41,655 nucleotides of DNA from Verrucomicrobiales bacterium (lineage in GTDB: Bacteria; Verrucomicrobiota; Verrucomicrobiia; Limisphaerales; SXTU01), in contig SXTU01000026.1 in assembly GCA_005791875.1 (NCBI GenBank), positions 1 through 41,655 of the forward strand, given 5' to 3'. Positions 2,420 through 40,369 of this stretch are shown here, one piece after another. The notes under the pieces were generated by a model. That model had not been told where the DNA came from, made no database searches, and worked only from the letters and a program-made list of their open reading frames with translations. The translations under genes and the position numbers were made by a program. How positions within the stretch are numbered: the stretch's first letter is position 1; every line of letters starts with the position of its first letter.

Positions 2420-3259
2420 TTACGGGGAAGCCTTGCTCTTTAGCCAATCGACGTCTGCGGTATTGTTGGCGACGACAGTCACGCCATTCCAAATCCCCAA
2501 CTGATTCCACTTGTGAGACTCGGCGCGGCCGTCTGCGAAACCGATGGTGGTCGAGCCACCATGGAGCGCGGCAGGGGGATTCTCAAAAGTGTTAAATGAA
2601 GCCCTCCAACTGGGGTTGGGAGCGCCCGTTCCCGCAGTCCCCAAGTCGAGGCGGAAAATGCAATCTTCGATGGTTTGTGGAGATTCGTGGATGAACACGA
2701 AGTTGTCCGACGGCTTTCCGATGTTCGACTCCCGCCTGAACACGGTATACCCGGGGGAATTCACCGCCCCGGCCGTCCGGTTCATGAAGATGTTCATCGT
2801 GACGCTGCGAACATAGGGCACAGTCCTACCACTGCCGGGATAAGGCGTTTTGTCTGATGGGCACTGGAAGATGCCTGCGTTCCCCGCGTAGCGGCCCAAA
2901 AGCCCAGTCATGAAATAGGCAGGGTCGATGTCGCAATTCGGGCAGGCAGCCTGGTGGGCTCCACCTGGCTGCTGCATCCAGCCGTTCGCCCAAGATCGAT
3001 TGGCGTTGGCGAGACCTCCTCCCGCGTTGTCGTTAAGCACGAGCCGGTCATCCTGATCCCCCGAGTAGAGTGCCCATGCCAGTTGCAGTTGCTTGTTGTT
3101 GGAAAGGCACTTGGTGCCCAAGGCCTTGCTCTTGGCCTTGCCCAAGGCCGGCAAGAGCATCCCGGCCAGAATCGCGATGATGGCGATGACGACGAGAAGT
3201 TCGATGAGTGTGAAGCCAAACGACCGGGCTGGGCGGAGAGGTTGGTGACAATATTTCAT
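2420..3259 (-). CDS. Type II secretion/type IV pilin-like pseudopilin, HX9DG class (paralogue)
   Basis: 279-aa pseudopilin, upstream member of the tandem pair. The leader [15 protein letters not shown] precedes the prepilin motif [18 protein letters not shown] with Glu at +5 of the mature form. The C-terminal H-x9-DG motif is [14 protein letters not shown]. It has a longer variable middle than its neighbour, including CPNCDIDP and a proline-rich stretch. The N-terminal 60 residues are almost the same as in the downstream copy, while the rest diverges, pointing to an old tandem duplication with the assembly helix conserved. Likely co-transcribed with the downstream copy. Substrates and function are unknown. 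Confidence 0.9.
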
Positions 3260-11983: not shown

Positions 11984-13162
11984 TCACCGATCGTAAATGC
12001 GCGCCGCCTCGGAGAAGCCCTTCACCTCCGCGCCCGCGCGGCCCGGGATGATCTCCAGCCGCAGCCTTCCATCGGCCAGCACTTGCGCGAGCACGACGCC
12101 CTGCACCACGTCGGCGTCATGGCGCACCTGCCGTTGGCCGGAGCTGCCGAGCTGTCCGTAGAGCAGCTCGTATTTCACGAGGCCGTCCGCCGCGCTGACC
12201 TTCGCCGGGTCCGGCGCGTTGTCTTTTACCCAGAACTGGCGCGGCCTGCCACCGTAGCTGCCGAGCGACACGACGAGGTTTGCCGGCTCGACGTGGTGAT
12301 ACACGAACGCAACGTGCCCATCCCAGTAGTCGAGACGGGGGTTCAAGCCCGCGTAGCCGCCGCTGTCCTGCCGATACCAGTTGCCCACGAGCCGCCCGGC
12401 CACGTCGTAGCCGATCTGCCCGCCGAGCGGCTTCGACTTGCGCGGGTTCAGCGCGAGCAGCTTGCCGCGCAGCGGCTCGTCCACGTAGTCGAACGGATCC
12501 ACCGTGTGCGGCTTCCACGGGTCGCGATGGAGGAACTGCTCCAGCCGCGCGAAGCCCGTGCGCGTCACGGTCGAGTCCACGAGGGCGAAGTCGAACATCC
12601 GCTGCACGTGACCGATGACCTGCCCAGCCTTCACCGGGATGCGCACGTTGAACGGTGGGCCAGGCCGCAGCGGTTCACCGACTTCCTTCAACAGCGACGC
12701 CTCCAACTCGGTGACGTGGTCGTAATAGCTCCAGCACGTCGCCGAGTGCTCCAGCGTGAGCTTCAAATCCACCGCGCGGTCCAACACCGTGGGGTCAAAC
12801 TGCGCCTGTCCGCCGGGCGGGTTGGGCCGCCATTGCAGTGAGACGATGAACCCGTCCGCCACGGCGAGCACGTCGTGGAGTTGTTCCTTCGCGCCATTCG
12901 CGACGAGATAGAGATGGTCGGTGGGTGTCGTGTGGCCGCTGGCCATCATGCCCATCGGGTTGATGTGGCTGATGTCCGCCACGCGCACGGGAAAGTTCGC
13001 GAGCCGCACCGGGCCGGTGCCAGCAGCTTGTCCCCGGCTTCACATCCGGTTCAAGGCCTCGGCGGTGGTGGCAGGCTTGGTCTGTGCGGAAGCGGTGCCC
13101 GCATAGCCAGCGGCCAACAACATCGCAAGGAGTCTGGCAGCCGCAGAGGTTCTATCGCTCAT
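11984..13162 (-). pseudogene. Secreted M23-like domain protein interrupted by TGA at codon 41
   Basis: The ATG at 13162 overlaps the end of the 1402-aa gene by 11 nt. It begins a good signal peptide (LLAMLLAAGYAGTASA). Codon 41 is TGA (13042-13040) in the context NRM-stop-SRGQAAGTGPVRL. The upstream paralogue reads AMWSRGQAVGRGPVRF at this spot, so the TGA replaces a Trp TGG. The frame then stays open for 351 codons. The body matches the C-terminal third of the 1402-aa protein across its length (VDPFDY, DEPLRGKLLALNPRK, GRLVGNWYRQDSGGYAG, GQLGSSGQRQVRHDAD). It has a lysostaphin/M23-like layout (GHTTPTDHLY, VLAVADGFIV, VKAGQVIGHV), with catalytic competence doubtful. An internal start at 13009 could still give a cytoplasmic 341-aa product without a signal peptide. 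Confidence 0.75.
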
Positions 13163-16100
13163 AAATCTGAGTCCTCTTCGTGAAGCCCTTCACCTGCGAC
13201 CCTGACTGGCCGGGGAACACCTCGAATCTCAACTTCCGGTTCGGCAACACCTGCGCGAGCACGACGCCCTGCACGGTGTCCGCGTCTTGGCGGACCTGCG
13301 GCTGGCCGCTGCTGCCGAGCTGGCCCCAAATCAACTCGAACTTCACCACCCCGTCCGCCTCGCCAATCTTCGCGGGGTCAGGCGCGTTGCCTTTCACCCA
13401 GAACTGCGCGGTCTTGCCGCCGAAGTCGCCGAGGCTCACGATGATTCTGCTGGGGTCAATGTGGTGCGGTGCGAACGCGAGGTGACCCTTCCAATATCCA
13501 TGCGGGTCCGAACGGTCACCCGCGTATCCGCCGGTGTCTTCGCGGAACCAGTTGCCGACGAGCCTGCCATCCACGTCGTAATCAATCTTGCCGAAGAACG
13601 GCTTCACCTTGCGGGCGTTCAGCGCGAGGAGTTGCGAGCGCAGCGGCTCATCGAAGTAGTCGAACGGGTCCACGATGTGGACGCGCCATGAGTAATGCCC
13701 ATAGAGCGACGGGGTGAGGAAGCCGGGCAGGCGCGTCTCGGTATTCACCACGCCGAAGTCCAGCGAGCGACCGCCGACCTTCCCGAGGACTTGGCCCGCC
13801 TTCACCGCGATGCGAGTCTGCGTGGGTGGTCCCATTCGCTTCTGCGCGAATCGCTCGCGCACCACTCCGTCGAGGCGCTCAAGCACTGACTTGTCCAGTT
13901 GCGTGAGCAGGTCGTATTGAGTGTAAAACGTGCCGGAGTGCTCGATGGTCAGCGCGTAGTCGCCGTATTCGCGCGTGCGCTCGGTCGAGCCGGCCATCTG
14001 TGTGCGATGGCCAACGATGACGATGAACCCGTCCGCTGGTGCCAGCACGTCGAAGTGTGCGCCGCTCGGCGGGACCGCCTTCGGATAAAAATAGCCGTGG
14101 TCAATCGGGCAAACGTGGCCACCCACCATCAAGCCGTAGGGCACGACGCTCGCGATGTCCGCATGTCGCATCGGCGAGTAGGTAAATCGCACCGGGCCTC
14201 GGCCGACCGCCTGTCCGCGGCTCCACATCGCGCCCCAGTCGGTCAAGCCATCCGGTAGTGTGGGCGGCCGGAAAGATTGCCGGCCCGGGCCTTGGCCTTT
14301 CTGGTTCGGCAGCGGTTGCGAGAAGCGCTGCGCGCTCGGCGTGCCCGGTCGCGGCGGCCCAGTGGCGGCGAGCAGCCAACTGCCGTCCTTGAGCTTCACC
14401 GCGCCGGGGTCGGCTCCGGGAAAGCGCGTCGCGCCCGCGCCCGTTGTCCAAGTCGCGCCATCCGCGCTCGTCACCGGCCACGGTCCCTGCCCCGTGCCGA
14501 AGAACACGAGCCGCCCGCCGTCGCTCTGCATGTTGCCGAGCCAGCGGCCCTGCGTCGGCATGGTCACATCCGCGACCCGCTCGAACTTCAGACCGTCCTT
14601 GCTCACCAGATGATAGCCCGTGCCTCCGCGGGGCGGCGCGCGCCGTTGCTGGTCCGCGGCCATTTCCTCCGCCGACCCGTTGTCGGGCACGATGAGATGG
14701 AACACGCCGTTGTGCAGCGCAGCGGCGCAATCAATCACCACGCGCCCCTCCAGCGCGAAGCGCACACCCGGTTCCACGTCGTAGCGAATCCCGTCCTTCG
14801 AGACCGCTGAGTAAATCGCCGGCGTGCCACGGCGGAAATCCGGGCTGCGGCTCGATGTGAAATACATCCGCACGCGGCCGTCCGGCAGCGGCACGAGCGT
14901 CGGGTCGAACGGCCGCGCCAAGCCCGCATCCAAGCCTTCCACAATTGTGGACTGCGGCTTGGTCCACGTCCGGCCTTCGTCGCTGGAGAAACACACGGCC
15001 ACGAGGTCGAAGTTGCGGTCGTCGTCCGCTGGAAAATTCTGGAACGCCGCGATGAGCCGGCCATCCTGCATCCGCGCAAGCGTTGGCACGCCTGCGCGAC
15101 CGAAGGTGGCAAGCTGCGCCGGCTGTTCCGTGCTGTGACGCTGCACAATCACGTCCTGGTCCCACGGACCGGGGCCAGTGCCGCGCGGCCAACTTGGACC
15201 CTGGCCTCCTTGAGATGCGCGATTGGGATTGAACTGCGGCTGTGCATTCGCGCGTGTGGTGCGTTGCACTGCCGCGTTGGCCTGCCGGCTGAAGCGCAGG
15301 ATGCGCGTGCTGAACTTGAACTCGCCCACCCACAAGTAGCCGCCGCCAGACGCCACCGAGCCGGGCATGAACATTTTGTTGCGACTGAGGCCAGCCTTGC
15401 GGTCTTGCTCGTCGGTCGCACCGAGCGACGCATCGGCCGGTCGGCCCGCCAGCGCGTCCTCCACGCGGTCCCACACTTGCACGCGATGGTTGCTGCGGTC
15501 AGCGACGAAGAACTGGCCGTTCGCCGCGAGCGCATCGCCGGGCAGGTTGAACACGCCCGCCCCGCCGATGCGATACGCGCGGTTGTCCGTGCCGAGTTCC
15601 TTCACCGGCCACACGCGGACTTCCTGCCCCTCGAACGGCGCGGCGCACAGGTAGTTCCCGTCGCTGTTCAGCCGGCCGGGGTTCGACACTTCGAGCGTCA
15701 GCTTGGGCTCGCTGTCCGCGCCGGGGATGCCGTCCCACACGTAGATGCGGTTCGCCTGCCGGTCCGCGAGGTAGAAGTGCCGCGTGTCCACCGCCACGCC
15801 GGTCAGTTCGCGCAACTCGACGCTGCCAATGCGTCCGCGCAACGTCACATCGGGCAACTCGCCGTCGAGCGGAAGCTTCTTCCAGATGAAGACCGTGTTG
15901 CGGCCTGCGAGTGCGAGCGTCGTGCTGCTCGCGGCGTTGTCCCACGCACCGTCGGGCAGATGATAAACGAGGTCGGGCTTCGCCGCGCTGGTGTCCGGCA
16001 GGCTGCGCCAAACGTATAACTTTCGGTCAAAGTCCGACGAGACGAACAGGCTCTTGCCGTCAGTGGCAACGGCGGGGTTTTGGATGAAGTAGTTCTCAGC

Positions 16101-19221: not shown

Positions 19222-19268
19222 GCGGTGCGGTGGTGGTATAGTTCGTGTCAGGACAACATTCGGTCTTT

Positions 19269-19411
19269 CATTAGCACCCGGCTTCAGCCGGGTGGGTTGG
19301 GCGACACGAAAGGGAAGCCGTTTCAACGGCTTTTGACAGCGGGCAGAAACCGTTGAAACGGTTTCCGCAGCGCCACCGACGCAAACACCCGGCTGAAGCC
19401 GGGTGCTAATG
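19269..19411. repeat. CATTAGCACCCGGCTTCAGCCGGGTG complex palindrome, copy 1
   Basis: Outer arms 19269-19294 and 19386-19411 are a perfect 26-nt inverted repeat, and each contains its own hairpin (ACCCGGCTTCAGCCGGGT). Two inner hairpins lie between them (GCCGTTTCAACGGC near 19317; AACCGTTGAAACGGTT near 19348). The whole can fold as a cruciform or cloverleaf. A second copy is at 34244-34393. It occupies the 276-bp gap between the TauE-like gene and the Sco1 gene. Confidence 0.92.
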
Positions 19412-19497
19412 AGAGGGTCAAAGCCGACTTAGCAGCCGGCGCTCCGCTCGCTGCGCTGCCTTGTCAAAGCCCACGCGCCGGAACACATTTCCTGGCG

Positions 19498-28967: not shown

Positions 28968-31900
28968 GTGACCAACCCAGCGCACATCTCCCCGGCCCCG
29001 CCCGCGCCGGACTTGCTCCGTGAGCTGCAACAGCTCGTGCAGCGCAACACGCGGCGATGGAAGCGGCTGCTCGCGCTGGAGATGCTCGCGGTGCTCGTGG
29101 CGGCACCGCTGGCTTACCTCTGGGTCGTCTTCTCGCTCGACATCCTTGTGCATCTGCCGCGCTGGGGGCGCGTGGCGACGAGCGCGCTGTTCTTCGCGGT
29201 GCTGGTCGTGCTCGGGCGCTGGCTGTGGCAGCGGTGGCAGGAAGTCCGCCTGACCGAGGACCAAGTCGCGCTCGTCATCGAGCAGCGCACGCCGGGCGCG
29301 CGCAACCAGCTCATCAACAGCCTGCAAATCTCCCGCGAGGCGGGGAGCGGCGCGGGCGATTACGGCCCAGCGGTGCTGCGGGAGAACTACGCGTCGCTCC
29401 AAGCGTTGCATCTTCAGCAGGCGGCGAAGCTGAGGCCGGCGCTCATTCGCCTCTCCGTCGCGGGGCTGATGGTGGGCATCGGCGTCGGGTTCTACGTCTT
29501 CAAGCAGCAGCACTTCACCAACGCCGCGTCGCGCATCTTCCAGCCCTTCGCGCAAATCGCTCCGCTCTACCGCACGCTGCTCGCGGTCGAGCCCGGTGAC
29601 GTGCAGGCCGCGCCCGGCAGCACGGTGCGTGTGCGCGTGCGCATCACCGGCGAGCACCCGGCCCGGCTCGCGGTGCGGCAGGTCATCGGTGAGACGAGCA
29701 CGGTGGTTCAAGTGCCCGTGCCACCGGGCGCGACGGCGGTGGATTACACCTTTCCGAACTTGCAACGCTCGCTCACCTACGCCGTCACGGGCGGCGACTT
29801 CACCACGCCGGTTCACACCATCGAGGTGCCGCTGCCGCCGCAGGTGAATCTCGTCCGGGCCACGCTCCAACTGCCGGACTACACGCGCCTCGCGCCGCAG
29901 AAGATTGAGACGAGCGGCGGCGACCTCGAGGCTCTCCACGGCACGCGCGCCGCGCTGACCTTCGTGCTCGACCAACCGGCCGACGAGGCGGTGCTGTTGC
30001 TCGAGGGGGGGCTGGTGAAGGGCGCGACCAACGCCGCGCCGCGCCAGCTTGCGCTGCGTCGCCTCAGCCCCACGGAGTTCAGTGGGGAACTCACTTTTGC
30101 CGATGTGGCCGCCTATCAAGTCCGCGTGCAGCGTGGCAAGCAGGCCCCCGGCCCGAGCCTGCGCTACGGCCTGCGCGTGTTGCCGGACCAGCCGCCGCAA
30201 CTCGCCGTCAGCGGCCTCGACAAGCAGACCGAGGTGCAACTCGGCTCCGTCCTCCCGCTCAAGCTCACGGCCAGCGATGACTACGGCCTGAGCGAAGTCG
30301 GCCTGTTCGCGCGCAAGATGACGACCGCCGCCGCACCAGCCAAGGGCGCGACCAATGCACCGACGGCGGACGCGGAGTGGCACGCGGTCACGGGGTGGCC
30401 GCAGCCCAACTTGTCCCGCGAGTTCAAGTCCGACTTCTCCCTCGCCATCGCGGCGCTCGGCGCGGTCGAGGGCGAGCGCGTGGAAGTCGCCTTGCGCGCG
30501 CGCGATGCCGACCCCGCGAAGGCCGGCGCGTGGACGACTGGCGAGAGTTACACGCTGCTCATCGGCGGCGAGGGCACCATCTTCCAAGTCCTCTACGAGC
30601 AAATCCTCCAGTCGGAGGCGGACCTCAAGCAGCTCATCACGCGGCAGCAGCAGGGCGTCGCGCTCGCGGCGGGCTGGATGCAGAAGTTCGACCCCGCGTC
30701 CGGCGTGCGCTGGGACGACACGAAGAATCTCGACGCGCTGGCCAATGCGATGCGCGACGGGGCCACGGCGCAAGAGCAGTTGCGGCAGTCCGCCGGCGCG
30801 ACGGCGCGCAACTTCGTCTCCGCCGTCGGCACGCTGCGCTTCTCGCTCGGGATGCTGGCGGACACGGAGATGATTCGGCTCACGCGCATCCTCGAGAGCG
30901 TGGCGACGCAGGACACGCCCCCCGCCAAGCGCGCCGCGCTGGCCGAGGCGCGTTTCACGGCGGAGCGAACCATCGCCAGTCTCAACGAGATGCTCGGGCA
31001 ATACGTCGCCTTCCGGCAGAACTGGGAGCTGTCGAACATGACGCCCTTCCTGAAGATGCTCGCCGACCGCGAACTGGCGTTGCGCGACGAGTCCGCCGCG
31101 CAGGCTGGCAAGCCCGCCGCGCCGCTCGCCGCGAAGTCCGCCGCCGCGCGCCAGGCGAAGGTGCTCGCGCTCGCGGGCCTCGCGCAGTCCGCGCTAGCGG
31201 GCGTGGGCGAGCGCGTGACGCCGGTGGATGCGCCGCTCGGGCAGGCGTTCACGGCGGCGGCGGTGGCGCTGGATTCCAGCGGAGCCAAGACCGCACTGCA
31301 ACAGGCGGTGGCCGAGTTGACGCGGGGCCGTTGGTCCACTGCTGCAGCCGCCCAGACCAAGGCCGCGACGGCGCTCGCGGACATTCACGCGAAGCTCAAG
31401 CAGGCCGGGGCCGAGGCGCTGGCGCGCGCGATGAAGGAGCTGGAGTTGAAGGAGTCGCAGTTGGCCGCGCAGAAAGCCTTGGAGAAAATGATGCCCGGCT
31501 CCGGCGACAAGCTCGTGAACTTCCGGCAGGACCTCGCCAACCTCAGCGACGTGGTTCAGATGCGCGAAACGGTCGCCACCGGCAAGCCCGGCGACAAGGA
31601 CAAGGAACGGGGCACGCAGCCAGCCATCCCGCCGGACCTCGGCAGCAAGCTGGCGACGCAGGAAAGCAGCGCGCGGCCTGACTTGAGCACGATGTTCCTC
31701 GGCACGCGCGTGGAGAAGACGGCGAAGATTCCCGGGCTTGAAGGCTTGCAGCCGAACCAAATCACCGCGCCGCTTGTGCCGGACAAGCTCGAAGACCTCG
31801 TCGGCAAGCTGCTCGATGAGGCGGACGAGATGGAGGAGAAGTTCGACACGCTGGCCTTGAACTCCGGCCTCGTCGCCGTGGACCCCGGCGAGGTGAGCAA

Positions 31901-32672
31901 GATGGGCGGGCGCTTGAACTCGAACGCCGCCACGGCGACCACGGGCAACAAGAAGCCGCCCACCGCGAACGTCGGCGGCATGTCCGGCACGGGGCGGCAG
32001 GGCGCGCGGTCTTACGGCAAGGTCGCGGGCAGCGAGTCGCCGAACATGCGCGGGCGCGACAAGGTGCAGGAGGGGCAGTTCGAGGCGCCGGACCAAGAGG
32101 GCGTGCTCAAGGAGAAGAAGACCGACGACATGCAGAAGGACCAGTCCACGGGCATCGGCGGCAAGCGCGTCGAGTCCGACGACACGAAGTTCAGCCTTGC
32201 GAACAAGAGCGAGTGGAGTGACAAGTTCGCCGACCGGATGCAGAAACCGCAGGCGGTGAATCACATCGTCGAGCGCCAGGGCAAGCCGCTCGACCCGAAG
32301 GTGGCCGCGTTGCTCCGCGACTTGGACGGCGACCAGAAGCAGCTCATCCAGCGCGCGAACGCGTTGCGCAAGGAGCTGAAAAATCTCTACCTGCCCACCG
32401 ACCATCTCGACGACCTCATCGCGCAGCTCAACCAGAACCTGGAGAAGCTCCGCGAGGCACCGACCGCGGAGACCTTCCGCACACAGCAGGAATTGCTCGA
32501 CCGGCTGCGCTCGGAGGCGCGGGTGTTCCAGCGGGCGGGCACGGGTTTCCAACCCAGCCTGCCGCGTCACCAGCAGGTGCGCGGGCGCATCCTCGACGAA
32601 CCCGCCGGCCCCGTCCTGCCACGTTACGAGCAGGTGGTGAAGGAGTATTACCGCCGCCTTGCCGCGCCATGA
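28968..32672 (+). CDS. Large membrane-anchored coiled-coil protein (DUF4175-like)
   Basis: A 1234-aa protein with a GTG start at 28968. Two hydrophobic helices near 33-85 (LLALEMLAVLVAAPLAYLW; VATSALFFAVLVVLGRWLW) and a third near 160-180 (LSVAGLMVGIGVGFYVF) anchor it. Beta-sandwich-like regions follow (about 190-520), then a long helical part (about 540-860) and a Gly/Asn/Lys-rich, low-complexity tail. The layout matches the DUF4175-like proteins seen in verrucomicrobia and planctomycetes, often with MoxR/BatA-type genes, none of which are here. Its stop overlaps the next ATG (ATGA), so it leads the operon. Probably an inner-membrane scaffold; the function is unknown. Confidence 0.75.
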   Translation: MTNPAHISPAPPAPDLLRELQQLVQRNTRRWKRLLALEMLAVLVAAPLAYLWVVFSLDILVHLPRWGRVATSALFFAVLVVLGRWLWQRWQEVRLTEDQVALVIEQRTPGARNQLINSLQISREAGSGAGDYGPAVLRENYASLQALHLQQAAKLRPALIRLSVAGLMVGIGVGFYVFKQQHFTNAASRIFQPFAQIAPLYRTLLAVEPGDVQAAPGSTVRVRVRITGEHPARLAVRQVIGETSTVVQVPVPPGATAVDYTFPNLQRSLTYAVTGGDFTTPVHTIEVPLPPQVNLVRATLQLPDYTRLAPQKIETSGGDLEALHGTRAALTFVLDQPADEAVLLLEGGLVKGATNAAPRQLALRRLSPTEFSGELTFADVAAYQVRVQRGKQAPGPSLRYGLRVLPDQPPQLAVSGLDKQTEVQLGSVLPLKLTASDDYGLSEVGLFARKMTTAAAPAKGATNAPTADAEWHAVTGWPQPNLSREFKSDFSLAIAALGAVEGERVEVALRARDADPAKAGAWTTGESYTLLIGGEGTIFQVLYEQILQSEADLKQLITRQQQGVALAAGWMQKFDPASGVRWDDTKNLDALANAMRDGATAQEQLRQSAGATARNFVSAVGTLRFSLGMLADTEMIRLTRILESVATQDTPPAKRAALAEARFTAERTIASLNEMLGQYVAFRQNWELSNMTPFLKMLADRELALRDESAAQAGKPAAPLAAKSAAARQAKVLALAGLAQSALAGVGERVTPVDAPLGQAFTAAAVALDSSGAKTALQQAVAELTRGRWSTAAAAQTKAATALADIHAKLKQAGAEALARAMKELELKESQLAAQKALEKMMPGSGDKLVNFRQDLANLSDVVQMRETVATGKPGDKDKERGTQPAIPPDLGSKLATQESSARPDLSTMFLGTRVEKTAKIPGLEGLQPNQITAPLVPDKLEDLVGKLLDEADEMEEKFDTLALNSGLVAVDPGEVSKMGGRLNSNAATATTGNKKPPTANVGGMSGTGRQGARSYGKVAGSESPNMRGRDKVQEGQFEAPDQEGVLKEKKTDDMQKDQSTGIGGKRVESDDTKFSLANKSEWSDKFADRMQKPQAVNHIVERQGKPLDPKVAALLRDLDGDQKQLIQRANALRKELKNLYLPTDHLDDLIAQLNQNLEKLREAPTAETFRTQQELLDRLRSEARVFQRAGTGFQPSLPRHQQVRGRILDEPAGPVLPRYEQVVKEYYRRLAAP

Positions 32673-34204
32673 ACCTCCCCGTAGCCGCCGACGTGAGGAG
32701 GCGGACTCAACAGTTGGCGAGAATGGAAGCTTCCGGTGGAACGCAGCTCGCAGTATGTGTCGGCCGTTTTCTCCCTCACCCCGGCCCTATCCCGCTGGGA
32801 GAGGGAGCCATTTCCCCCGCTGCTCGACCACCTGAACGGTTCGATTACTTCGAGCGCTGCCGACCATTCTCCCTCTCCCAGCGGAAGAGGGCTGGGGTGA
32901 GGGGGAGCGGCTACGATGGTCTAATATCGTCGGATGCACCCGCGTTGTGCCTTTCCACTTTCTCTCTCTTGATTGTGCGCCGGTTGGGTTCAGCACTCTT
33001 GGGATTGCTCCTCGCGTTCACCCTCCCGGCCGCCACGTTGCCCCGCGAGTTCGAGGTCACGCCCACGCCGCTCGCGGAGCCACCCGCGTTCATCACCCAA
33101 GTCGTGGTGTCCAACGCCCTCTGCGCCGCCGTGAGGGAGGCGTCGTCGCTGCTAGTCGTGGGCCAGCGTTCGACCAACGACCAGCACCTCGCCGTGTTCC
33201 GTCTCGGCGCGAACGGCCTGCCCGCCGGCGAGCCGACGCGCCTCGCGTTGCCCAAGCCCGCCGTGCTTGCGAAGCACGCGAACTACCCGCTCGGTCTGCT
33301 CTTCCATCCGCGCCTGCCGGTGCTCTACGTGTGGCAGGACATCTCCGCGCCGCCGCAGGACCAGCAGGAGAAACACGCCGCGTTCACCAACTGGCTGGAG
33401 TTCGAGCACCTGCTCATTTACGCGGTGAAACCCACGGGCCTCGAACTGGTCGAGACCGCTGCGCACGGCGTGGGTTTTCACTGCGGCCTCACGGGCGGCA
33501 CCGTCGGGCTGGACGCGGCGGGAAAGATGCTCTTCCTCCCCAACAGCATCGGCGCGACCTACGACGAGGCAGGCATCGCCTACTACGCGCTCGATGAACA
33601 GGGCTTGCCGGTGGACTCCGACGAGGCCGACGCCGGCAAGTCCCGCGTGAAGGCCGGCAAGGAGAAGCCGCTCGCGAGCCGCTTCGCGCGCACCGTGGTG
33701 GCGCTCCAGCGCAAGCGCACTCATCGCTACTATCCGTCCGGCGCGGGGTGGTTCGCCGGGAGCGACGCTATGGTGATGGGCGGCTACTCCGGCTGCATGA
33801 GCGCGGACTTTCAACGCGGCGGGCTGCGGCAATCGTGGTTCACAACGCTGGAATTCGCCGGCCACTGTGTGCTGGCCGGGCATCCCAACCAGCCGGCGAT
33901 TTACCTCGCGATGCAGAACACGCCGCGCCTCTTCCAGCTCGCGCACGCGGACGGTTACGTTTCGCTCCTGCCGCAAGTCGCGTCGGCGAAGGGCGTGCAA
34001 CTCCAAGGCGCGCCGGTCGTGCTCACTCAGCAAGCGCGCGTGGCCGTCGGCGCGGCGAAGTCGGTCTGTCTCTTTGGCTTGGAAGCGGACGGGCGGTTGG
34101 ATGGGAAGGTGGAACAAGTCACGTTGCCCAGCGCATCGGTGCGCGCGATGGCCTACGCGGAGAAGCGCGGGCGGCTCTATGTGGCGGTGGACAAAGGGAA
34201 CTGA
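32669..34204 (+). CDS. Secreted lactonase-like beta-propeller protein
   Basis: The ATG at 32669 overlaps the upstream stop (ATGA), giving 511 aa, but the first 100 residues are encoded by two palindromic repeats. A signal peptide then begins (SLLIVRRLGSALLGLLLAFTLPAAT). In-frame TTG 32969 or GTG 32975 would give about 410 aa with a normal N-terminus. I keep the coupled start and note the alternative. The mature part has propeller strands (SSLLVVGQRSTNDQHLAVF, LPVLYVWQDIS, GLTGGTVGLDAAGKMLF, AGHPNQPAIYLAMQNTPRLF, GRLYVAVDKGN). It resembles 7-bladed lactonase-like proteins; the substrate is unknown. Confidence 0.75.
   Translation: MNLPVAADVRRRTQQLARMEASGGTQLAVCVGRFLPHPGPIPLGEGAISPAARPPERFDYFERCRPFSLSQRKRAGVRGSGYDGLISSDAPALCLSTFSLLIVRRLGSALLGLLLAFTLPAATLPREFEVTPTPLAEPPAFITQVVVSNALCAAVREASSLLVVGQRSTNDQHLAVFRLGANGLPAGEPTRLALPKPAVLAKHANYPLGLLFHPRLPVLYVWQDISAPPQDQQEKHAAFTNWLEFEHLLIYAVKPTGLELVETAAHGVGFHCGLTGGTVGLDAAGKMLFLPNSIGATYDEAGIAYYALDEQGLPVDSDEADAGKSRVKAGKEKPLASRFARTVVALQRKRTHRYYPSGAGWFAGSDAMVMGGYSGCMSADFQRGGLRQSWFTTLEFAGHCVLAGHPNQPAIYLAMQNTPRLFQLAHADGYVSLLPQVASAKGVQLQGAPVVLTQQARVAVGAAKSVCLFGLEADGRLDGKVEQVTLPSASVRAMAYAEKRGRLYVAVDKGN
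32681..32712. repeat. Half element of the GTAG-GACGTGAGGAG family
   Basis: GTAGCCGCCGACGTGAGG followed by AGGCGGACTCAACAG matches one arm of the hairpin at 16699-16771. It starts 12 nt after the coupled ATG of the propeller gene and is in frame with it. No second arm is seen nearby. Confidence 0.65.
32770..32905. repeat. CTCCCTCACCCC...GGGGTGAGGG palindrome, copy 1
   Basis: Left arm 32770-32807 and right arm 32869-32905 pair over about 37 nt with few mismatches (CTCCCTCACCCCGGCCCT / AGGGCTGGGGTGAGGG). Copy 2 is at 40233-40369, and the loops are also related (GCTCGACCACCTGAACGG vs CCTCGACAAACTGAACCG), so the whole 135-nt unit is the repeat. It lies in the open frame between the coupled start and the signal peptide of the propeller gene. 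Confidence 0.9.
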
Positions 34205-34207
34205 GGG

Positions 34208-35038
34208 ATGAACGTGAGCCACTCAACGCATCGGCCTCAGACTCTCATTAGCAACCGGCTTCAGCCGGGTGGCACGGGACGGTGTGAATTGGTTAGCCGT
34301 TTCAACGGCTTCGGTGGCGCGAGTCGGAAACCGCTGAAGCGGTTGTCTGCGTTCACGGCGCTGAACACCTGGCTGAAGCCAGGTGCTAATGAGAGGGGGA
34401 ACCGTTGCCTCCGTCGGTTGGCCATTTGGCTCTTGGGCCCCCTGCTTGCCTTCCTCGCCACGACTGCCTCCGCCCGCACCATCACGCTCAAACCCGAAGC
34501 CGTGGATGCCTTCGCCACGTTGTCCGAGAGCCACCCGCGCAGTGGCTGGGCGGCGCAGCAGATTGACCCGACGCTCTTCGTCTCCAACCCGCCCATCGGC
34601 GGCGCGAACACGAGTTACTTGGTCCGCTATTCCTTCGACCAAATCCCCAAGGGCAACCGCATCACGCACGCGGAGTGGGTTGTTCCCGTCGGGTTCGCGG
34701 CGACGAGCACCGTGACCGTGTGGCGCGTGCTCGCGGAGTGGGGCATCGGCGTGTGCCACCAGTTCCGCATGGTGCATCCCAAGCGGTTGGAGTGGTCCGT
34801 GCCCGGCGCACGCGGCCGCTCCGTGGACCGCGCGACCAAGCCCACGGGCAGCGGCAAGTTCGAACCGGGCATGGTGCATGTGACCGTCAACGTGACCCAG
34901 GATGTCGAGCTCTGGCACGGCGGGGCGGCGCCGAACCGCGGCTGGCTGCTCGCGTTCGATGGCCCATGCATCCTCATCTCACCCACGCACGCCGGGCGGC
35001 AGCAATGGCAACTCAGAGTCACGTATGAACCGGAGTGA
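34208..35038 (+). CDS. Secreted DNRLRE-like domain protein
   Basis: The ATG at 34208 lies 3 nt after the upstream stop, behind GAGGG, giving 276 aa. Residues about 13-62 are encoded by a palindromic repeat. The signal peptide follows (RRLAIWLLGPLLAFLATTASA). In-frame TTG 34418 is the alternative start (206 aa). The mature domain has YLVRYSFDQIPKGNRITHAE, TVTVWRVLAEWG and a C-terminal VNVTQDVELWHGGAAPNRG, the order of a DNRLRE beta-sandwich found in cell-surface and carbohydrate-associated proteins. It has no catalytic motif. Its stop lies 14 nt inside the next gene. Confidence 0.72.
   Translation: MNVSHSTHRPQTLISNRLQPGGTGRCELVSRFNGFGGASRKPLKRLSAFTALNTWLKPGANERGNRCLRRLAIWLLGPLLAFLATTASARTITLKPEAVDAFATLSESHPRSGWAAQQIDPTLFVSNPPIGGANTSYLVRYSFDQIPKGNRITHAEWVVPVGFAATSTVTVWRVLAEWGIGVCHQFRMVHPKRLEWSVPGARGRSVDRATKPTGSGKFEPGMVHVTVNVTQDVELWHGGAAPNRGWLLAFDGPCILISPTHAGRQQWQLRVTYEPE
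34244..34393. repeat. CTCATTAGCAACCGGCTTCAGCCGGGTG complex palindrome, copy 2
   Basis: Outer arms 34244-34271 and 34366-34393 are inverted copies, each holding a hairpin. The inner hairpins (GCCGTTTCAACGGC; AACCGCTGAAGCGGTT) match those of copy 1 at 19269-19411. In frame with the DNRLRE-like gene start, it encodes TLISNRLQPGGT through NTWLKPGANERG. Confidence 0.92.
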
Positions 35039-37778
35039 TTTTTCACCACAGAGACACGATGAACACAGAGGCCTTCCTCCGGGGCTTCCCTCTGTGTTCA
35101 TCGCGACTCTGTGGTCCATCCTTCTGCTGGCCGCCTCGACCGTTGGCCAAGCCGCCGCGCCGGTGCCACCGAAGGCTGCTCCCGCTGCGCCCGCCGTGGC
35201 CTTGCCCGCGCCGGCGTGGGTGCCGGGCTATCGCGTGCGTTTCCCGCTGCGGCTCATCGGCGATTTCGCGAGCGAGAAGGCGCAGACGCAGTCGGTCATC
35301 GCGCGCCTGCCCGCCGCCGGCTGGCTGCGGCCCGATGGCGCGGACATCTGCGTGCAACGGCAGGATGGAACGGTCCTGCCCGTCGCCGTGCTTTCGCACC
35401 AACCCGATGGCGAGACGCTCATCCAGTTCAAACGCAACACCAACGACCCGGTCTATTGGGCCTACGCGGGCAACGCGAAGCTGCCGCATCCGAACGTCGC
35501 GGCGCTGCCCGAGGGTATCACCGTCGAGTTCCGCAACTGGACCGGCACCTCACTGGCGAGCTGGGCGGAGGTGGTCGGGAGCTTGAAGCAAAGCCCGGCA
35601 GTCATCGGCAACGGCTTCGTGGACCAGGTGGTGCAGAACGTGAACCCGGCGCGGCCGGACAACGTGCGGAACTTCGCCGCGTCCTATCGCGGCTTCTTCC
35701 GCATCCCGGAGGACGGCGCTTACAAGTTCTACCTCGGCGCGGAGAACGCGGCGTTCCTCTTCATCCACACGAACCGCGTCTTCGAGCAGACCGGCGCGGC
35801 GCGTTTCGCCAATCGCATCCTCGCCAGCGCGTGGCGCGAAGTGGAGCTGAAGGCGGGCGTGCATTCTTTCGAGGTGCATCATGTGGCTGGTCCCGCCGCC
35901 GGCGTGGCGAATTGCACGCTCTACCTGAAGCGCGACCCGGCGAACAAGAAGCTCGCCGCCGCCGCCGTCCCCGCCGGGATGTTCGCCCAGGCCACGCGTG
36001 CCGAGGTCGCGGGCATCGAGGGCGCGAACGGCGCGGCGGCCATGACGTTCGCGTGGGGAGTTGACGACACGTTGAGCACGCCGGGGCTGGCGTTGCACCT
36101 CGTGCGCTTCGAGGCGCACGGCGCCAGTCCGGACCCGACGAAGGTGCAGTGGGACTTCGGCGACGGCACGCGCGGCACGGGGCGCTCGCCGACGCACGTT
36201 TATTTCAAGCCCGGCGAGTATCGCGTCACGCTGGACGCGGGCGGCGGCGCACCGCCGGTCACGCAACGCATCTACGTCTGGACCGCGCCGATACCCACCA
36301 GCCCGCACTCGCTCGGACGCGCGGTCGAGCTGTTGTCCGCCGCCGACTGGAGCGGCTGGGACGCGCAACGGTTCAACGCCGCCTTCGATTTCCTCCTCGT
36401 CTCCGAGCAGCCGCACCGCTGGCCGCTGGTCGAGCGGCTCGCGCGGCATTTGCTCGCGCAGCCGGACCTTGATGTGAAGCGCCGCATAGCGCTGCAAACG
36501 ACCTTGATGGAAGCGCTGGCCCGGCAAGGTCGCGGCACGGAGGCGATGGCGCTGATGGACGAGGCGCTCAAGGTCGCCGGCAAGGTCCCGAGCCTGCGCG
36601 TCACCCTGCTGCTCAAGGGCGCGGACTTGCAGTGGAATTATCTGAAGGAGTTTCCCAAGGCCGCACAGCTCTACGAGGGCATCATCAATGACCATCGCGG
36701 CCTCGGGCATCCGGCGGTGCGCGAGGCGGCGATTCACTGGGGCGACCTCTTCACGCAGGCCGGCGACCTCGTGCAAGCCGCCGAGCGCTACCGACTCGCG
36801 AAGTCGCTGGGCGGCGAGCGCTTCGCGGCGACCGGCCAGAACGAGGCCATCCAGCGCGGCGCGTTGCTGCGCATCACGGAACAAAAGCTCCGCACCGGCG
36901 ACGTGCGTGGCACGCGGCTGCTGCTGGAGCGGCTGGAGCTGGAATTCCCCGAGCAAAAACTCGAAGGCATGTATCGCTTCCTGCGCGCGGAGACGGACCG
37001 TTTCGCGGGCCGCTACGAGGACGCCATCCGCCATTACGAAGTGCTGCTGAAGCTCCGCCAGTGGGCCGGCTTCCGCGACCGCGCGATGCACGGCCTGGCC
37101 GATTGCGCGCTGCGGCAGGAGGATTTCGCGACCGCGCAGGCGTGGCTGGAAAAGCTGCGCGAGACGTTCCCCGACTACTTCATGCAGCAGAAGCTCACGC
37201 CGGTCTTCGCCGTGGTGAAGGCCCGCGCCGAACGAGTCACCGCCGCGAAGACGAACGCGGTGGCCGCCGCGGACGCGACCTTTCGCGGCCACGTCACCGG
37301 CTTCGAGCCGGGCGACACGCAACCCGCCGGGCGCTTCGACCGCGTCGCCTTCGAGCCCATGTTGGGGATGGACGGGCCGACGGTGACCAGCGGGCGTTTC
37401 AGCATGACGAAGGATTTGCGCAACGTGCCGCCCGACAGCGCGTGCTGGGTGGAGTTCTGGTATCGCAAGCAAGGCAACACGAGCCTGGAGCCGTATCAAT
37501 ACTGCTACATGAACGTCTGGATGTATGCTGGCGCGGACGGCCCGGCCACGAGTCCCACGGCGCACCAACTCATCCCGCTGGACCGCGCGTCCTATGGCCA
37601 GTGGCGCAAGGCCGCCGTGCGCATCCGCACCCCGCTCGCGCCGGACGCGCTACTGAAGCTGGAGCTCATCAACATCACGGGCACCGTGCAGATTGACGGC
37701 CTGAAAATCTTCCCCGTGAGTGACCGCCAGAGCGATTCCCTGCGGAGTTTCATCGAGGCCGAGGAGGTGGAACAATGA
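35025..37778 (+). CDS. Secreted DUF2341/PA14/PKD/TPR multidomain protein
   Basis: A 917-aa protein. The ATG at 35025 lies 14 nt before the upstream stop. The first 30 residues are encoded by a palindrome (FSPQRHDEHRG, then VFIATLW), whose right arm supplies the start of the signal-peptide core VFIATLWSILLLAASTVG. GTG 35094 is an alternative start inside the palindrome. Domains: DUF2341-like (about 63-147, VPGYRVRFPLRLIGDF); PA14 (about 165-302, YRGFFRIPEDGAYKFYLG); PKD (about 358-422, VQWDFGDGTRGTGRSPTH); TPR-like helices (about 425-725); and a C-terminal jelly roll (about 752-898, VTGFEPGDTQPAGRFDR). PA14 and PKD point to carbohydrate binding at the surface. The stop overlaps the next ATG (ATGA). 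Confidence 0.85.
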   Translation: MNRSDFSPQRHDEHRGLPPGLPSVFIATLWSILLLAASTVGQAAAPVPPKAAPAAPAVALPAPAWVPGYRVRFPLRLIGDFASEKAQTQSVIARLPAAGWLRPDGADICVQRQDGTVLPVAVLSHQPDGETLIQFKRNTNDPVYWAYAGNAKLPHPNVAALPEGITVEFRNWTGTSLASWAEVVGSLKQSPAVIGNGFVDQVVQNVNPARPDNVRNFAASYRGFFRIPEDGAYKFYLGAENAAFLFIHTNRVFEQTGAARFANRILASAWREVELKAGVHSFEVHHVAGPAAGVANCTLYLKRDPANKKLAAAAVPAGMFAQATRAEVAGIEGANGAAAMTFAWGVDDTLSTPGLALHLVRFEAHGASPDPTKVQWDFGDGTRGTGRSPTHVYFKPGEYRVTLDAGGGAPPVTQRIYVWTAPIPTSPHSLGRAVELLSAADWSGWDAQRFNAAFDFLLVSEQPHRWPLVERLARHLLAQPDLDVKRRIALQTTLMEALARQGRGTEAMALMDEALKVAGKVPSLRVTLLLKGADLQWNYLKEFPKAAQLYEGIINDHRGLGHPAVREAAIHWGDLFTQAGDLVQAAERYRLAKSLGGERFAATGQNEAIQRGALLRITEQKLRTGDVRGTRLLLERLELEFPEQKLEGMYRFLRAETDRFAGRYEDAIRHYEVLLKLRQWAGFRDRAMHGLADCALRQEDFATAQAWLEKLRETFPDYFMQQKLTPVFAVVKARAERVTAAKTNAVAAADATFRGHVTGFEPGDTQPAGRFDRVAFEPMLGMDGPTVTSGRFSMTKDLRNVPPDSACWVEFWYRKQGNTSLEPYQYCYMNVWMYAGADGPATSPTAHQLIPLDRASYGQWRKAAVRIRTPLAPDALLKLELINITGTVQIDGLKIFPVSDRQSDSLRSFIEAEEVEQ
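35046..35114. repeat. CCACAGAGACACGATGAACACAGAG palindrome, copy 1
   Basis: Arms 35046-35070 and 35090-35114 are 25-nt inverted copies with two mismatches and a 19-nt loop. Copy 2 is at 37810-37897. It sits inside the N-terminal coding region of the DUF2341/PA14 gene. Confidence 0.92.
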
Positions 37779-40093
37779 AACGACGCCACAGCCAGACCAG
37801 CGCCGATTGGGACCACAGAGACACGATGAACACAGAGAAAGACATTTCAGCGAAACCTCCTCTGCTCTTCTCTGTGTTCATCGCGTCTCTGTGGTCCAAC
37901 TCCCCTCTCCATCCTGTGACGAAACGCATTCTTCCGCTCGCCCTCGGCCTCACAGCCCTGTGTCTCGTCTCCCCTGTGGTGGCCAAGGAAATTCATTCCA
38001 ACGGCCTTGGGGGCGGGCGGTGGAGCGATGCTTCCACTTGGAAGGGCGGCGCGGTGCCGACGGCCGAGGACGAAGCCGTCATCGCCGCCCGCGACACCGT
38101 AGTCTTCGACCGCGACGACTCCGACAAGCCCACCTGCAAGCAGTTGCTGCTCGACGCGAACTCCAACCTCGCGTTCCAAGCCGGCCAGGGTCGCCGCGTG
38201 CTCGCGGTGGACGGAATGGTCGAGGCTTACGGCAGCATCAAGATGCACGCGCCCGGGCTGACCGATGCGATGGAACTGCGCTTGGTGGCCACGAACACGG
38301 CGGAACGCATCTTCAAGCTCCAGCGCGGCGGTTCGTTGTTCCTCGTCGGGCGCGCGAATCTGCCGGACGGCAAACGCAACGTCGCCATCGTTTCGCCCAT
38401 CGCACCGGGCGAGAAGAACCCGCCGCCCGCTGAACTCACCGCCGTTGCGCGGACGATGGTGGATTTGCAGAACGCGCAGTTCGACAACGTGCAGGTGAGC
38501 CTCGCCGGCATAGACAACACCGGGGACAAGCCGAACGAGCGGTGCAACGTGATTGGCAACCGCTTCACCGCGTTCGCTCGCCTGAGCCTCTCGGGGTGCG
38601 ACACGCCGGCCATCGTGCGCAACGAGTTCCGCGCGCAGAAGGCGGCGATGGTGCGGCCTTCCGCACTTTCCGTGAGCAGTTGCCAGCTTGCGGACATCCG
38701 CGAGAATCGCATCTACGGCGCATACGCCATCGGCATCGCCGTCAGCGCGGGGGAGGTCAGCGTGACCGGCAATGTCATCGAGGACTGCGCGTCGGGCATC
38801 TCATGGCACACCGGCAATGCCATGCTGAAGCAGAACATCCTTCGCCACTGCAACACCGGCATGAGCCTGCGCACGTTGACCGGGAGCGCGGAGGACACGT
38901 TGATTGACCGCTCCGTCACCGCCGTCTCGCTCGCGGCTGCGAAGGTTCAGCTCACCAGCATCACCGTCACCAACGCCGTGACGAACAAGGTGCTGCACCT
39001 GGTCTCCAGTTCGCTCACGATGCTCAACTGCAACATCCCGCCCGAGCAAATCACGCTCACGCCGTCGTCGGCCAAGCCGAAGATTGTGCGCGGCGAGGAG
39101 CCGTTGGAGGTGCTGGAGTTCCTCGTGGTGCGCGTGAAGGACGAGTTCCCGCGCAACACACACGTCGAGGTCGTCACCACGAATCTGGAGAAGCCGCTCG
39201 CGCCGGGGGCCTCCGATTTGAACATCCGCAATTCCCCCGCGCCGGTGCGGGCCGACGGCATGACCGCGCTGCCGCACACGCTCACGCCGCTGGTTGTGAA
39301 GTCGTGGCGCATGCAGGAAGACGGCGTGGTGGTGCCCGCGCCGGAATACATGCTGAGCGTGTGGACGCTGCCCACCGTGTTCCCGGGCGCGATGAAATCC
39401 ACCGCCGACCTCAAGCTCGACGCGGAATACTATCGCGAAGAGTCCGCCAAGGCTGCCAAGGCCGTCACGGACGCGCGCGCCACGGCGGACAAGCTCGCGG
39501 CCAAGGCCGCCGTTGACCAGACCGCCGCCGAGTCCGCGTGGACCGCCGCAAAGGCCGCAGTCGACCAAGCCACCGCCGCGCTCGCCACCGCGCAGAAGCA
39601 GGCTGGGGACGACAAGCTCGCCGCTGACAAGGCCGCCGCGCTTTCCGCCGAGATGGCCAAGGCGGTCATCACCGCCCACGGCGCAGTGGTCAAAATCGCC
39701 ACCAAGGACGTGGAAGCCCGCGCCGCCGCTGAGGCCGCGTGGACGAAGGCGCGGGGGGTTGCCGCGAATGCCGCCGCCGACATGCTCAAAGCGCAGAAGA
39801 CGAGCGCCGCCAGCAAACTCGCCGCAGACAAAGCCGCCGCCGAGTCATCCGCAAAAGCGAAAGACGTCACCGACGCCCGCACCACCGCGGACAAGCTCGC
39901 CGCCAAACTAGCCACGGAAAGAGCCGCCGCCGAAGCCAACGTGAAGCTCGCTCAAGCCGTCGCCGCCAAGGCCGCCGCGCAACCCACCGCGCTGCCGAAG
40001 GTGCTCAAAACCCTCAAGCTCACCCCCAGCCACACCTGGCACCGCCCGCAGCCGAACGCGCCGGAGCCGACGGTGGAAGTCCAGTTGCCATGA
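37775..40093 (+). CDS. Secreted G8-like/beta-helix protein with Ala-Lys coiled-coil tail
   Basis: The ATG at 37775 overlaps the upstream stop (ATGA), giving 772 aa. Residues about 13-42 are encoded by a palindrome. The signal peptide follows (TKRILPLALGLTALCLVSPV), for which GTG 37916 would be a normal start (725 aa). The mature part begins with a G8-like motif (LGGGRWSDASTWKGGAVPT, then EDEAVIAARDTVVF). A right-handed beta-helix follows (about 225-425, with NRIYGAYAIGIAVSAGEVSV and NVIEDCASGISWHTGNAML). The last 220 residues are an Ala/Lys-rich helix with repeated ADKLAAKAAV and AADKAAA words, then a Pro-rich end. Probably surface-bound and glycan-interacting; the tail resembles histone H1-like repeats by composition only. 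Confidence 0.8.
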   Translation: MKRRHSQTSADWDHRDTMNTEKDISAKPPLLFSVFIASLWSNSPLHPVTKRILPLALGLTALCLVSPVVAKEIHSNGLGGGRWSDASTWKGGAVPTAEDEAVIAARDTVVFDRDDSDKPTCKQLLLDANSNLAFQAGQGRRVLAVDGMVEAYGSIKMHAPGLTDAMELRLVATNTAERIFKLQRGGSLFLVGRANLPDGKRNVAIVSPIAPGEKNPPPAELTAVARTMVDLQNAQFDNVQVSLAGIDNTGDKPNERCNVIGNRFTAFARLSLSGCDTPAIVRNEFRAQKAAMVRPSALSVSSCQLADIRENRIYGAYAIGIAVSAGEVSVTGNVIEDCASGISWHTGNAMLKQNILRHCNTGMSLRTLTGSAEDTLIDRSVTAVSLAAAKVQLTSITVTNAVTNKVLHLVSSSLTMLNCNIPPEQITLTPSSAKPKIVRGEEPLEVLEFLVVRVKDEFPRNTHVEVVTTNLEKPLAPGASDLNIRNSPAPVRADGMTALPHTLTPLVVKSWRMQEDGVVVPAPEYMLSVWTLPTVFPGAMKSTADLKLDAEYYREESAKAAKAVTDARATADKLAAKAAVDQTAAESAWTAAKAAVDQATAALATAQKQAGDDKLAADKAAALSAEMAKAVITAHGAVVKIATKDVEARAAAEAAWTKARGVAANAAADMLKAQKTSAASKLAADKAAAESSAKAKDVTDARTTADKLAAKLATERAAAEANVKLAQAVAAKAAAQPTALPKVLKTLKLTPSHTWHRPQPNAPEPTVEVQLP
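37810..37897. repeat. CCACAGAGACACGATGAACACAGAG palindrome, copy 2
   Basis: Arms 37810-37839 and 37868-37897 are 30-nt inverted copies with one mismatch and a 28-nt loop. It is in frame with the beta-helix gene and lies between its coupled ATG and its signal peptide. The loop sequence differs from copy 1. Confidence 0.93.
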
Positions 40094-40232: not shown

Positions 40233-40369
40233 TCTCCCTCACCCCAGCCCTCTCCCGCTGAGAGAGGGAGAAACCTATGCCGCTCCTCGACAAACTGAAC
40301 CGTCCCTTTCCACCACACGGTGCCGACGATTCTCCCTCTCCCAGCGGGAGAGGGCTGGGGTGAGGGAGA
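40233..40369. repeat. CTCCCTCACCCC...GGGGTGAGGG palindrome, copy 2
   Basis: Arms 40233-40271 and 40331-40369 are 39-nt inverted copies that match almost fully. The loop is related to copy 1 at 32770-32905. It occupies most of the 357-bp stretch 40094-40450, which holds no supported gene. An ATG at 40090 overlaps the upstream stop and opens a 109-codon frame through this repeat to 40419, without a signal peptide or domain, so I do not call it. Confidence 0.93.

What the first reader, a model, noticed from the sequence alone, without database searches (positions are those of the whole stretch)
32669..37945. Four consecutive genes carry palindromic repeats in frame between the start codon and the signal peptide
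At 32669, 34208, 35025 and 37775 the first ATG overlaps or lies within 3 nt of the upstream stop (two exact ATGA). In each case the frame then runs through a palindrome of one of four families (GTAG-GACGTGAGGAG half plus CTCCCTCACCCC; CATTAGCACC; CCACAGAGACAC twice) before a normal hydrophobic signal peptide appears. Each case alone could be chance in GC-rich DNA with few stops; four in a row, always in phase with the coupled start, is harder to dismiss. Either the repeats entered just behind coupled starts and were kept only when in frame, giving long N-terminal extensions to exported proteins, or translation restarts at TTG/GTG codons after them. The repeats could also tune coupling through RNA structure.
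Basis: partly seen in the sequence, partly recalled or inferred. Interest (0 to 1): 0.75.

Follow-up and report, generated by a model that had tools for sequence, protein, structure and literature searches.

The report
Translated repeats ahead of signal peptides
In a group of Verrucomicrobiota bacteria, different mobile palindromic repeats have landed again and again just behind the start codons of one set of linked genes for exported proteins, and the reading frame stays open through them in the relatives that could be compared, so they are probably translated as disposable extensions in front of the signal peptide.

Summary
In detail: at 32669, 34208, 35025 and 37775 an ATG at the upstream stop codon is followed in frame by repeat sequence and then by a signal-peptide-like stretch. 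Orthologous loci in four related genomes, plus one contig for gene 4, give a natural experiment. The start position is kept while the repeat differs. Two relatives lack a repeat in gene 2 and one lacks it in gene 3; there the signal peptide follows the start directly. Elsewhere other palindrome families sit in the same place. All 18 comparable states are open and in phase from that start to the conserved protein, against 7 of 36 for the other frames; a 19th is broken by an inserted gene. I favour read-through over restart at TTG/GTG. Against this, start signals for genes 1 and 3 are no better at the upstream ATG. Genome-wide the pattern is not general: at 105 other repeat junctions the gene frame is open 9 times, the other frames 12 and 5. 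A link to cleavable leaders failed its pre-set test (0 of 10). Closest kinds: GTAG-tagged REPs, Rickettsia palindromic elements, enterobacterial RU-2.

The parts
28968..32672 (+). upstream gene of the run (1234 aa, no Pfam or NCBIfam match)
32669..34204 (+). gene 1, 511 aa from the ATG in the ATGA overlap; conserved part (REFEV...) from about 33044
   Evidence: start position kept in G001, G002, G004
32681..32704 (+). GTAG-tagged REP half-element read in frame as VAADVRRR
   Evidence: dimers of this type in G001 junction 1 and in G000:C5 and C1
32770..32906 (.). CTCCCTCACCCC-family palindrome, in frame (LPHPGPIPLGEG...SLSQRKRAGVRG)
34208..35038 (+). gene 2, 276 aa; conserved ARTITL from 34472; DNRLRE-like match below the curated cut-off
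34242..34395 (.). CATTAGCACC-family palindrome, in frame; absent in G001 and G002, another palindrome in G004
35025..37778 (+). gene 3, 917 aa; PA14, PKD and TPR domains; 14-nt overlap with gene 2
35045..35115 (.). CCACAGAGACAC-family palindrome; its right arm (SVFIATLWS) runs into the signal-peptide core; shared by G001, another palindrome in G002, none behind the start in G046
37775..40093 (+). gene 4, 772 aa; beta-helix and G8 matches below cut-offs; GGAGGTGG ribosome-binding site before the ATG
37805..37902 (.). CCACAGAGACAC-family palindrome, in frame (DHRDTMNTE...SVFIASLWS); same family in G001, G002, G046 and contig L239, CTCCCTCACCCC family in G004
37916..37984 (+). possible alternative GTG start plus signal peptide (VTKRILPLALGLTALCLVSPVVA); GTG also in G046 and L239, absent in G001 and G002
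40233..40369 (.). CTCCCTCACCCC-family palindrome not in frame with the next gene (negative example)
19268..19412 (.). CATTAGCACC-family palindrome not in frame with the next gene (negative example)

Best explanation
Several families of small mobile palindromes (REP/MITE-like) have repeatedly inserted at the junctions of an operon for exported proteins. Because each start codon overlaps or touches the upstream stop codon, there is no non-coding spacer, so an insertion just behind the upstream gene falls into the first codons of the next gene. Only copies that keep phase and are stop-free are seen (shown by comparison). They are translated from the ATG at the stop codon as extensions of the signal-peptide n-region (inferred), which are removed with the signal peptide by signal peptidase (inferred from established secretion biology), so the mature protein is unchanged. 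In G001 and G002 the repeat's right arm appears to supply the hydrophobic core of the gene-4 signal peptide (read by eye).
For: The start position at the upstream stop is kept at each junction (in G046 the gene-4 start is GTG). Repeat-free states exist in which the signal peptide directly follows that start: gene 2 in G001 and G002 (25 residues to the anchor) and gene 3 in G046. Different palindrome families occupy the same place in different relatives: gene 1 has CTCCCTCACCCC, GGACTGCGG and GGTAGGG types, gene 2 CATTAGCACC and GATTGGGG types, gene 4 CCACAGAG and CTCCCTCACCCC. Start-to-anchor lengths run from 25 to 221 residues; 18 of 18 states are in phase and stop-free, against 7 of 36 alternative frames. 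For ten insertion states that I judged separate, the product of shuffle-based open probabilities is 3e-9 before phase, and 7.7e-8 with the alternative-frame rate; both assume independence. Gene 4 has a strong ribosome-binding site at the upstream ATG (-13.0 kcal/mol) and none at its two downstream GTGs. Outside the operon a 95.6%-identical paralogue pair in G000 keeps a GTAG dimer in frame behind an ATG at the upstream stop, without indels despite 29 differences in 120 nt. Two adjacent pseudopilin genes (GspK, and a GspJ-like one below its cut-off) carry in-frame repeats in their prepilin leaders.
Against: No expression data. For genes 1 and 3 the upstream ATG scores worse for ribosome binding than some downstream codons (gene 1: 0.0 against -4.4 at TTG 32999; gene 3: -2.4 against -5.0 at GTG 35094). 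Residue-level constraint in the leaders is weak: dN/dS 0.27-0.66 in six of seven segments and dN above dS in the gene-4 repeat between G001 and G002. Coding potential begins after the repeats in genes 1, 2 and 4 and in the right arm in gene 3. A GTG before the gene-4 signal peptide is present in three of six sequences. In G046 gene 2 was not found upstream of gene 3. There is no genome-wide frame excess, and the leader association failed its pre-set test. The named relatives are MAGs or bins.
Confidence: 0.72

Rival explanations
1. The repeats are non-coding and translation restarts at TTG/GTG codons behind them; the open frame from the upstream ATG is incidental in GC-rich DNA.
For: Non-ATG start codons lie near each signal peptide. 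GTG 37916 is also present in G046 and L239. Downstream codons of genes 1 and 3 have better ribosome-binding scores than the upstream ATG, and 13 of 25 called genes in the window score 0, so weak scores do not exclude a start. Outside this operon most repeats are neither inside a called gene nor open to an upstream ATG in the gene frame. Di Nocera et al. (PMC3733652, passages seen) write that most REPs in NH2-terminal coding regions may be extragenic.
Against: 18 of 18 orthologous states stay in phase and open although lengths and families change. In the repeat-free relatives the signal peptide starts at the upstream ATG. G001 and G002 lack the gene-4 GTG. G046 keeps 221 codons open through further palindromes (shuffle probability 0.045).
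Confidence: 0.2
2. The hairpins tune translational coupling or mRNA stability of the operon.
For: The four window elements fold strongly as RNA (-46.7 to -92.4 kcal/mol) and lie just behind starts.
Against: Presence, family, size and position vary between relatives and some junctions have none; tuning does not require in-frame retention.
Confidence: 0.05
3. Chance: few stops in GC-rich DNA and selection of a striking run by the reader.
For: Genome-wide gene-frame openness is like that of the other frames, and three other window palindromes are not in frame.
Confidence: 0.03

Closest known systems
GTAG-tagged REPs (Di Nocera et al. 2013, PMC3733652; passages including parts of the abstract seen)
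   Same: GTAG-ended palindromic half-sites, head-to-head dimers, many copies, codirectional intergenic location, intragenic copies; the paper reports the most intragenic GTAG repeats in O. terrae, a verrucomicrobium.
   Different: The paper suggests that most NH2-terminal copies are extragenic; here the orthologues indicate read-through. Three of the four families in the window are not GTAG-tagged.
Rickettsia palindromic elements (Ogata et al. 2000 and 2002; known here through passages of the review PMC10969869; the originals were not read)
   Same: Palindromes of about 150 bp kept in frame inside protein genes, from several families.
   Different: Here they sit between a start at the upstream stop and a signal peptide, several families exchange at one site, and the host phylum differs; sequence relation not compared.
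Enterobacterial RU-1/RU-2 elements (Delihas 2007, PMC2759123, passages seen; also PMC2229807, passages)
   Different: There the case is one small locus; here a run of four genes with repeat-free and repeat-exchanged orthologues.

Membership tests
GTAG-tagged REP (element at 32681-32704 only) | palindromic half-site ending in GTAG, dispersed in many copies | tested here: met
   133 sites with up to 3 mismatches in G000, 0 for the reversed-pattern control
GTAG-tagged REP (element at 32681-32704 only) | head-to-head dimers | tested here: met
   G000:C5 1779-1802 and 1825-1848 in opposite orientation; the window copy itself is a half
GTAG-tagged REP (element at 32681-32704 only) | association with a RAYT transposase gene | tested here: inconclusive
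   Y1_Tnp matches in 8 of 11 genus genomes, 2 in G000, none in G001; flanking by the repeat not examined
Rickettsia palindromic elements (as a kind: protein-coding palindromes) | palindrome in frame inside a protein gene whose relatives lack it | tested here: met
   gene 2 against G001 and G002; gene 3 against G046
Rickettsia palindromic elements (as a sequence family) | sequence similarity to RPE families | not tested
   no RPE sequence was compared
Rickettsia palindromic elements (as a kind: protein-coding palindromes) | the insert is translated in the cell | not testable with these tools
   needs proteomics or ribosome profiling
Intergenic REP with downstream restart | phase and stops unconstrained relative to the upstream start | tested here: not met
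   18 of 18 operon states in phase and open
Repeat-derived signal peptide (RU-2 type) | repeat encodes part of the signal peptide | tested here: inconclusive
   by eye MNTE...FSVFI(A/V)SLWS in G001 and G002 gene 4; no signal-peptide predictor was used

The most novel reading that the evidence does not exclude
Cleavable leaders (Sec and Tat signal peptides, prepilin leaders) of genes that start at an upstream stop codon are a safe harbour in which mobile palindromes can be translated harmlessly, exchanged for one another over evolution, and at times turned into the signal peptide itself.
Probability: 0.3. Interest if true: 0.75.

Novelty: new variant of a known kind. Interest (0 to 1): 0.55.

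Why it matters
The one survey of such repeats that I could read (PMC3733652, passages) treats copies at protein N termini as mostly wrong start calls. This operon offers repeat-free, repeat-bearing and repeat-exchanged orthologues, so that the question can be tested directly. It suggests that the stretch before a cleaved leader can tolerate mobile DNA, and it warns that start calls and signal-peptide predictions in repeat-rich Verrucomicrobiota need care.

Tried and rejected
Genome-wide frame excess: rejected. Leader association as a general law: exploratory 9 of 27 leader genes against 0 of 37 others (p=1.7e-4), 8 of the 9 in G000. The test written down, run on 1.15 Mb of fresh sequence from G005, G004 and G001, gave 0 of 10 against 1 of 25; the one case looks like a Tat leader by eye. 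A third set of 34 small loci gave 1 of 4 against 0 of 2. Pooled 10 of 41 against 1 of 64, p=3e-4; among ATGs near the upstream stop, 9 of 9 in-frame genes with leaders against 7 of 17 out-of-frame, p=0.004 with the Tat gene counted as a leader, or 8 of 9, p=0.024, without. Both pooled tests are post hoc and dominated by G000. Gene calls and hydropathy come from scripts of my own.

The CCACAGAG repeat as a portable signal-peptide cassette: of 313 genomes 5 had matches to the gene-4 peptide, 18 places in all. The four matches in frames of 745-789 aa are gene 4; a fifth (G001:C9, 928 aa) is not in the frame of the gene behind it and was not followed further. The other-frame control matched 7 of 313 genomes, also with some long frames. 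Selection on residues: inconclusive. Literature searches without any paper. Searches gave listings of which I opened four papers for passages; one search returned one Akkermansia genome paper, seen only in the listing.

Dropped before counts: G004 gene-3 junction (about 4.5 kb inserted); repeats inside called genes (37 over all sets; one of them is the gene-4 junction of G002); elements beyond the distance limits; L250, whose fourth-junction stretch looks nearly identical to L239.

Full report
What is there. The window is contig C151 of an unnamed 4.7-Mb genome, G000. It ends in a run of codirectional genes. Four of them have an ATG at the upstream stop: 32669 and 37775 overlap it as ATGA, three bases lie between at 34208, and 35025 overlaps by 14 nt. 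Behind each the frame runs through a palindrome and reaches a hydrophobic, signal-peptide-like stretch (by eye; no predictor was used). The repeats belong to dispersed families with 9, 48, 63 and 133 half-sites in this genome. The named records that hold the operon are MAG or bin contigs titled Verrucomicrobia(ota) or Akkermansia; from the isolate names I take at least two to be from lakes (recalled, not from a call).

Orthologues. One protein search over 58 genomes found gene 3 at 74-89% identity in four besides the own one (G001, G002, G004 of the same genus, G046 of another family). Their loci were fetched, and a bin contig (L239) added one more fourth junction. Gene 1: G001 holds a GTAG-type dimer, G002 a GGACTGCGG-type palindrome, G004 a GGTAGGG-type palindrome, G000 a GTAG half plus the CTCCCTCACCCC palindrome. 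Gene 2: none in G001 and G002 (MNASLFKLRTLALLAMILLAAPVGQARTITL in G001), CATTAGCACC type in G000, a GATTGGGG-type palindrome in G004. Gene 3: CCACAGAG type in G000 and G001, GGACTGCGG type in G002, none behind the start in G046 (MSRTQFFAFSLLLLAATLGAPAA), and about 4.5 kb with another gene inserted in G004. In G046 gene 2 was not matched upstream, and a palindrome lies before that start (by eye). Gene 4: CCACAGAG type in G000, G001, G002, G046 and L239, with two further palindromes in G046; CTCCCTCACCCC type in G004. The palindromes of G004 gene 1 and G002 gene 3 are imperfect, seen by eye and not reported by the finder.

Phase test. From the start at the upstream stop to a conserved anchor, all 18 comparable states are open, over 25 to 221 residues; the other two frames are open in 7 of 36. 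For gene 3 the anchor lies behind a variable Ala/Pro stretch, so its lengths overstate the leader. The states are not all independent. Frame is kept while family, length and sequence turn over; this is what read-through predicts and what restart behind a non-coding repeat does not require.

Start signals. Gene 4 has a strong ribosome-binding site at the upstream start (-13.0 kcal/mol) and gene 2 a moderate one (-5.3). Gene 1 has none (0.0) and gene 3 little (-2.4), and downstream codons do better there (TTG 32999 -4.4; GTG 35094 -5.0). Of 25 called genes in the window 13 score 0, so these scores carry little weight either way.

Genome-wide. About 1.14 Mb from five genomes, partly chosen because they hold these repeats, was scanned for genes and inverted repeats; 177 elements were classified. 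Most are neither inside a called gene nor open to an upstream ATG in the gene frame. Outside the operon, 9 of 27 repeat junctions before genes with a hydrophobic leader were open from an upstream ATG, against 0 of 37 before others. I wrote down a test for fresh data; it failed: 0 of 10 and 1 of 25. Another 34 small loci gave 1 of 4 and 0 of 2. With an ATG near the upstream stop, the gene frame is open 9 times in 105 and the other frames 12 and 5 times. The nine in-frame genes are five Sec-type exported proteins, three prepilin-like proteins (GspK by profile, GspJ-like and GspH-like below cut-offs) and one DUF1501 protein with a Tat-like leader; Sec and Tat labels are my reading. Three of the nine have ATGA overlaps, and seven of the nine lie in G000. 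So the phenomenon recurs elsewhere, but rarely.

Paralogues and hot spots. Two G000 genes (C1 and C5; 95.6% identical in protein, the C5 one ceramidase-like) both carry a GTAG dimer in frame behind an ATG near the upstream stop, with 29 substitutions and no indels in 120 nt. Inside called genes, 37 palindromes were found. In two DUF1549/DUF1553 proteins, 86% identical over the spanning alignment, from G000 and G005, different palindromes sit at the same loop behind a SATY motif, and two further proteins with that motif have palindromes there too. Sites that tolerate inserts seem to collect different palindromes over time.

How it works. Shown: kept start position, absence or exchange of repeats, kept frame. 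Inferred: coupling, translation through the repeat, removal of the extension with the signal peptide, and tolerance as the reason for the location. The likely insertion habit is simply 'behind the upstream stop'; the overlap places that site inside the next gene.

Known kinds. GTAG REPs in Verrucomicrobia, intragenic and NH2-terminal copies included, are described in PMC3733652, which regards most NH2-terminal copies as possibly extragenic (passages). In-frame palindromes are known from Rickettsia elements (review passages). A repeat forming part of a signal peptide was proposed for YPO1552 (passages). Searches, judged by their listings (one search listed 10 of 5,015 papers), showed no description of palindromes between such starts and signal peptides; the library is open-access only.

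Noticed in passing
L117:13427-15418, L184:15959-17929, L179:4095-6644, L201:5201-8059: Proteins with a SATY motif (the first two confirmed as DUF1549/DUF1553) carry different in-frame palindromes at the same loop behind the motif: a recurrent insertion spot inside genes.
   Followed up: partly
L053:5671-6700 (G000:C18): Two adjacent type II secretion pseudopilin genes (GspJ-like and GspK) each have an in-frame palindrome of a different family in the prepilin leader.
   Followed up: partly
L131:3-4079 (G000:C221): An FtsX-type permease gene holds three separate palindromes inside its called frame.
   Followed up: no
L033 (G046:C65) 14120-14782: The gene-4 leader of G046 is 221 codons long, starts at GTG and is open through two further palindromes.
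   Followed up: partly
L034 (G004:C478): About 4.5 kb with another gene is inserted between genes 2 and 3, with a CCACAGAG-type repeat shortly behind gene 2.
   Followed up: no
window 2200-2376 and 3041-3217; 11988-12508 and 13156-13679: Direct repeats of 161-300 nt (71-81% identity) suggesting duplicated genes on the minus strand.
   Followed up: no
L237, L238: GenBank titles call two of these operon-bearing MAGs Akkermansia muciniphila, which looks like a placeholder name.
   Followed up: no
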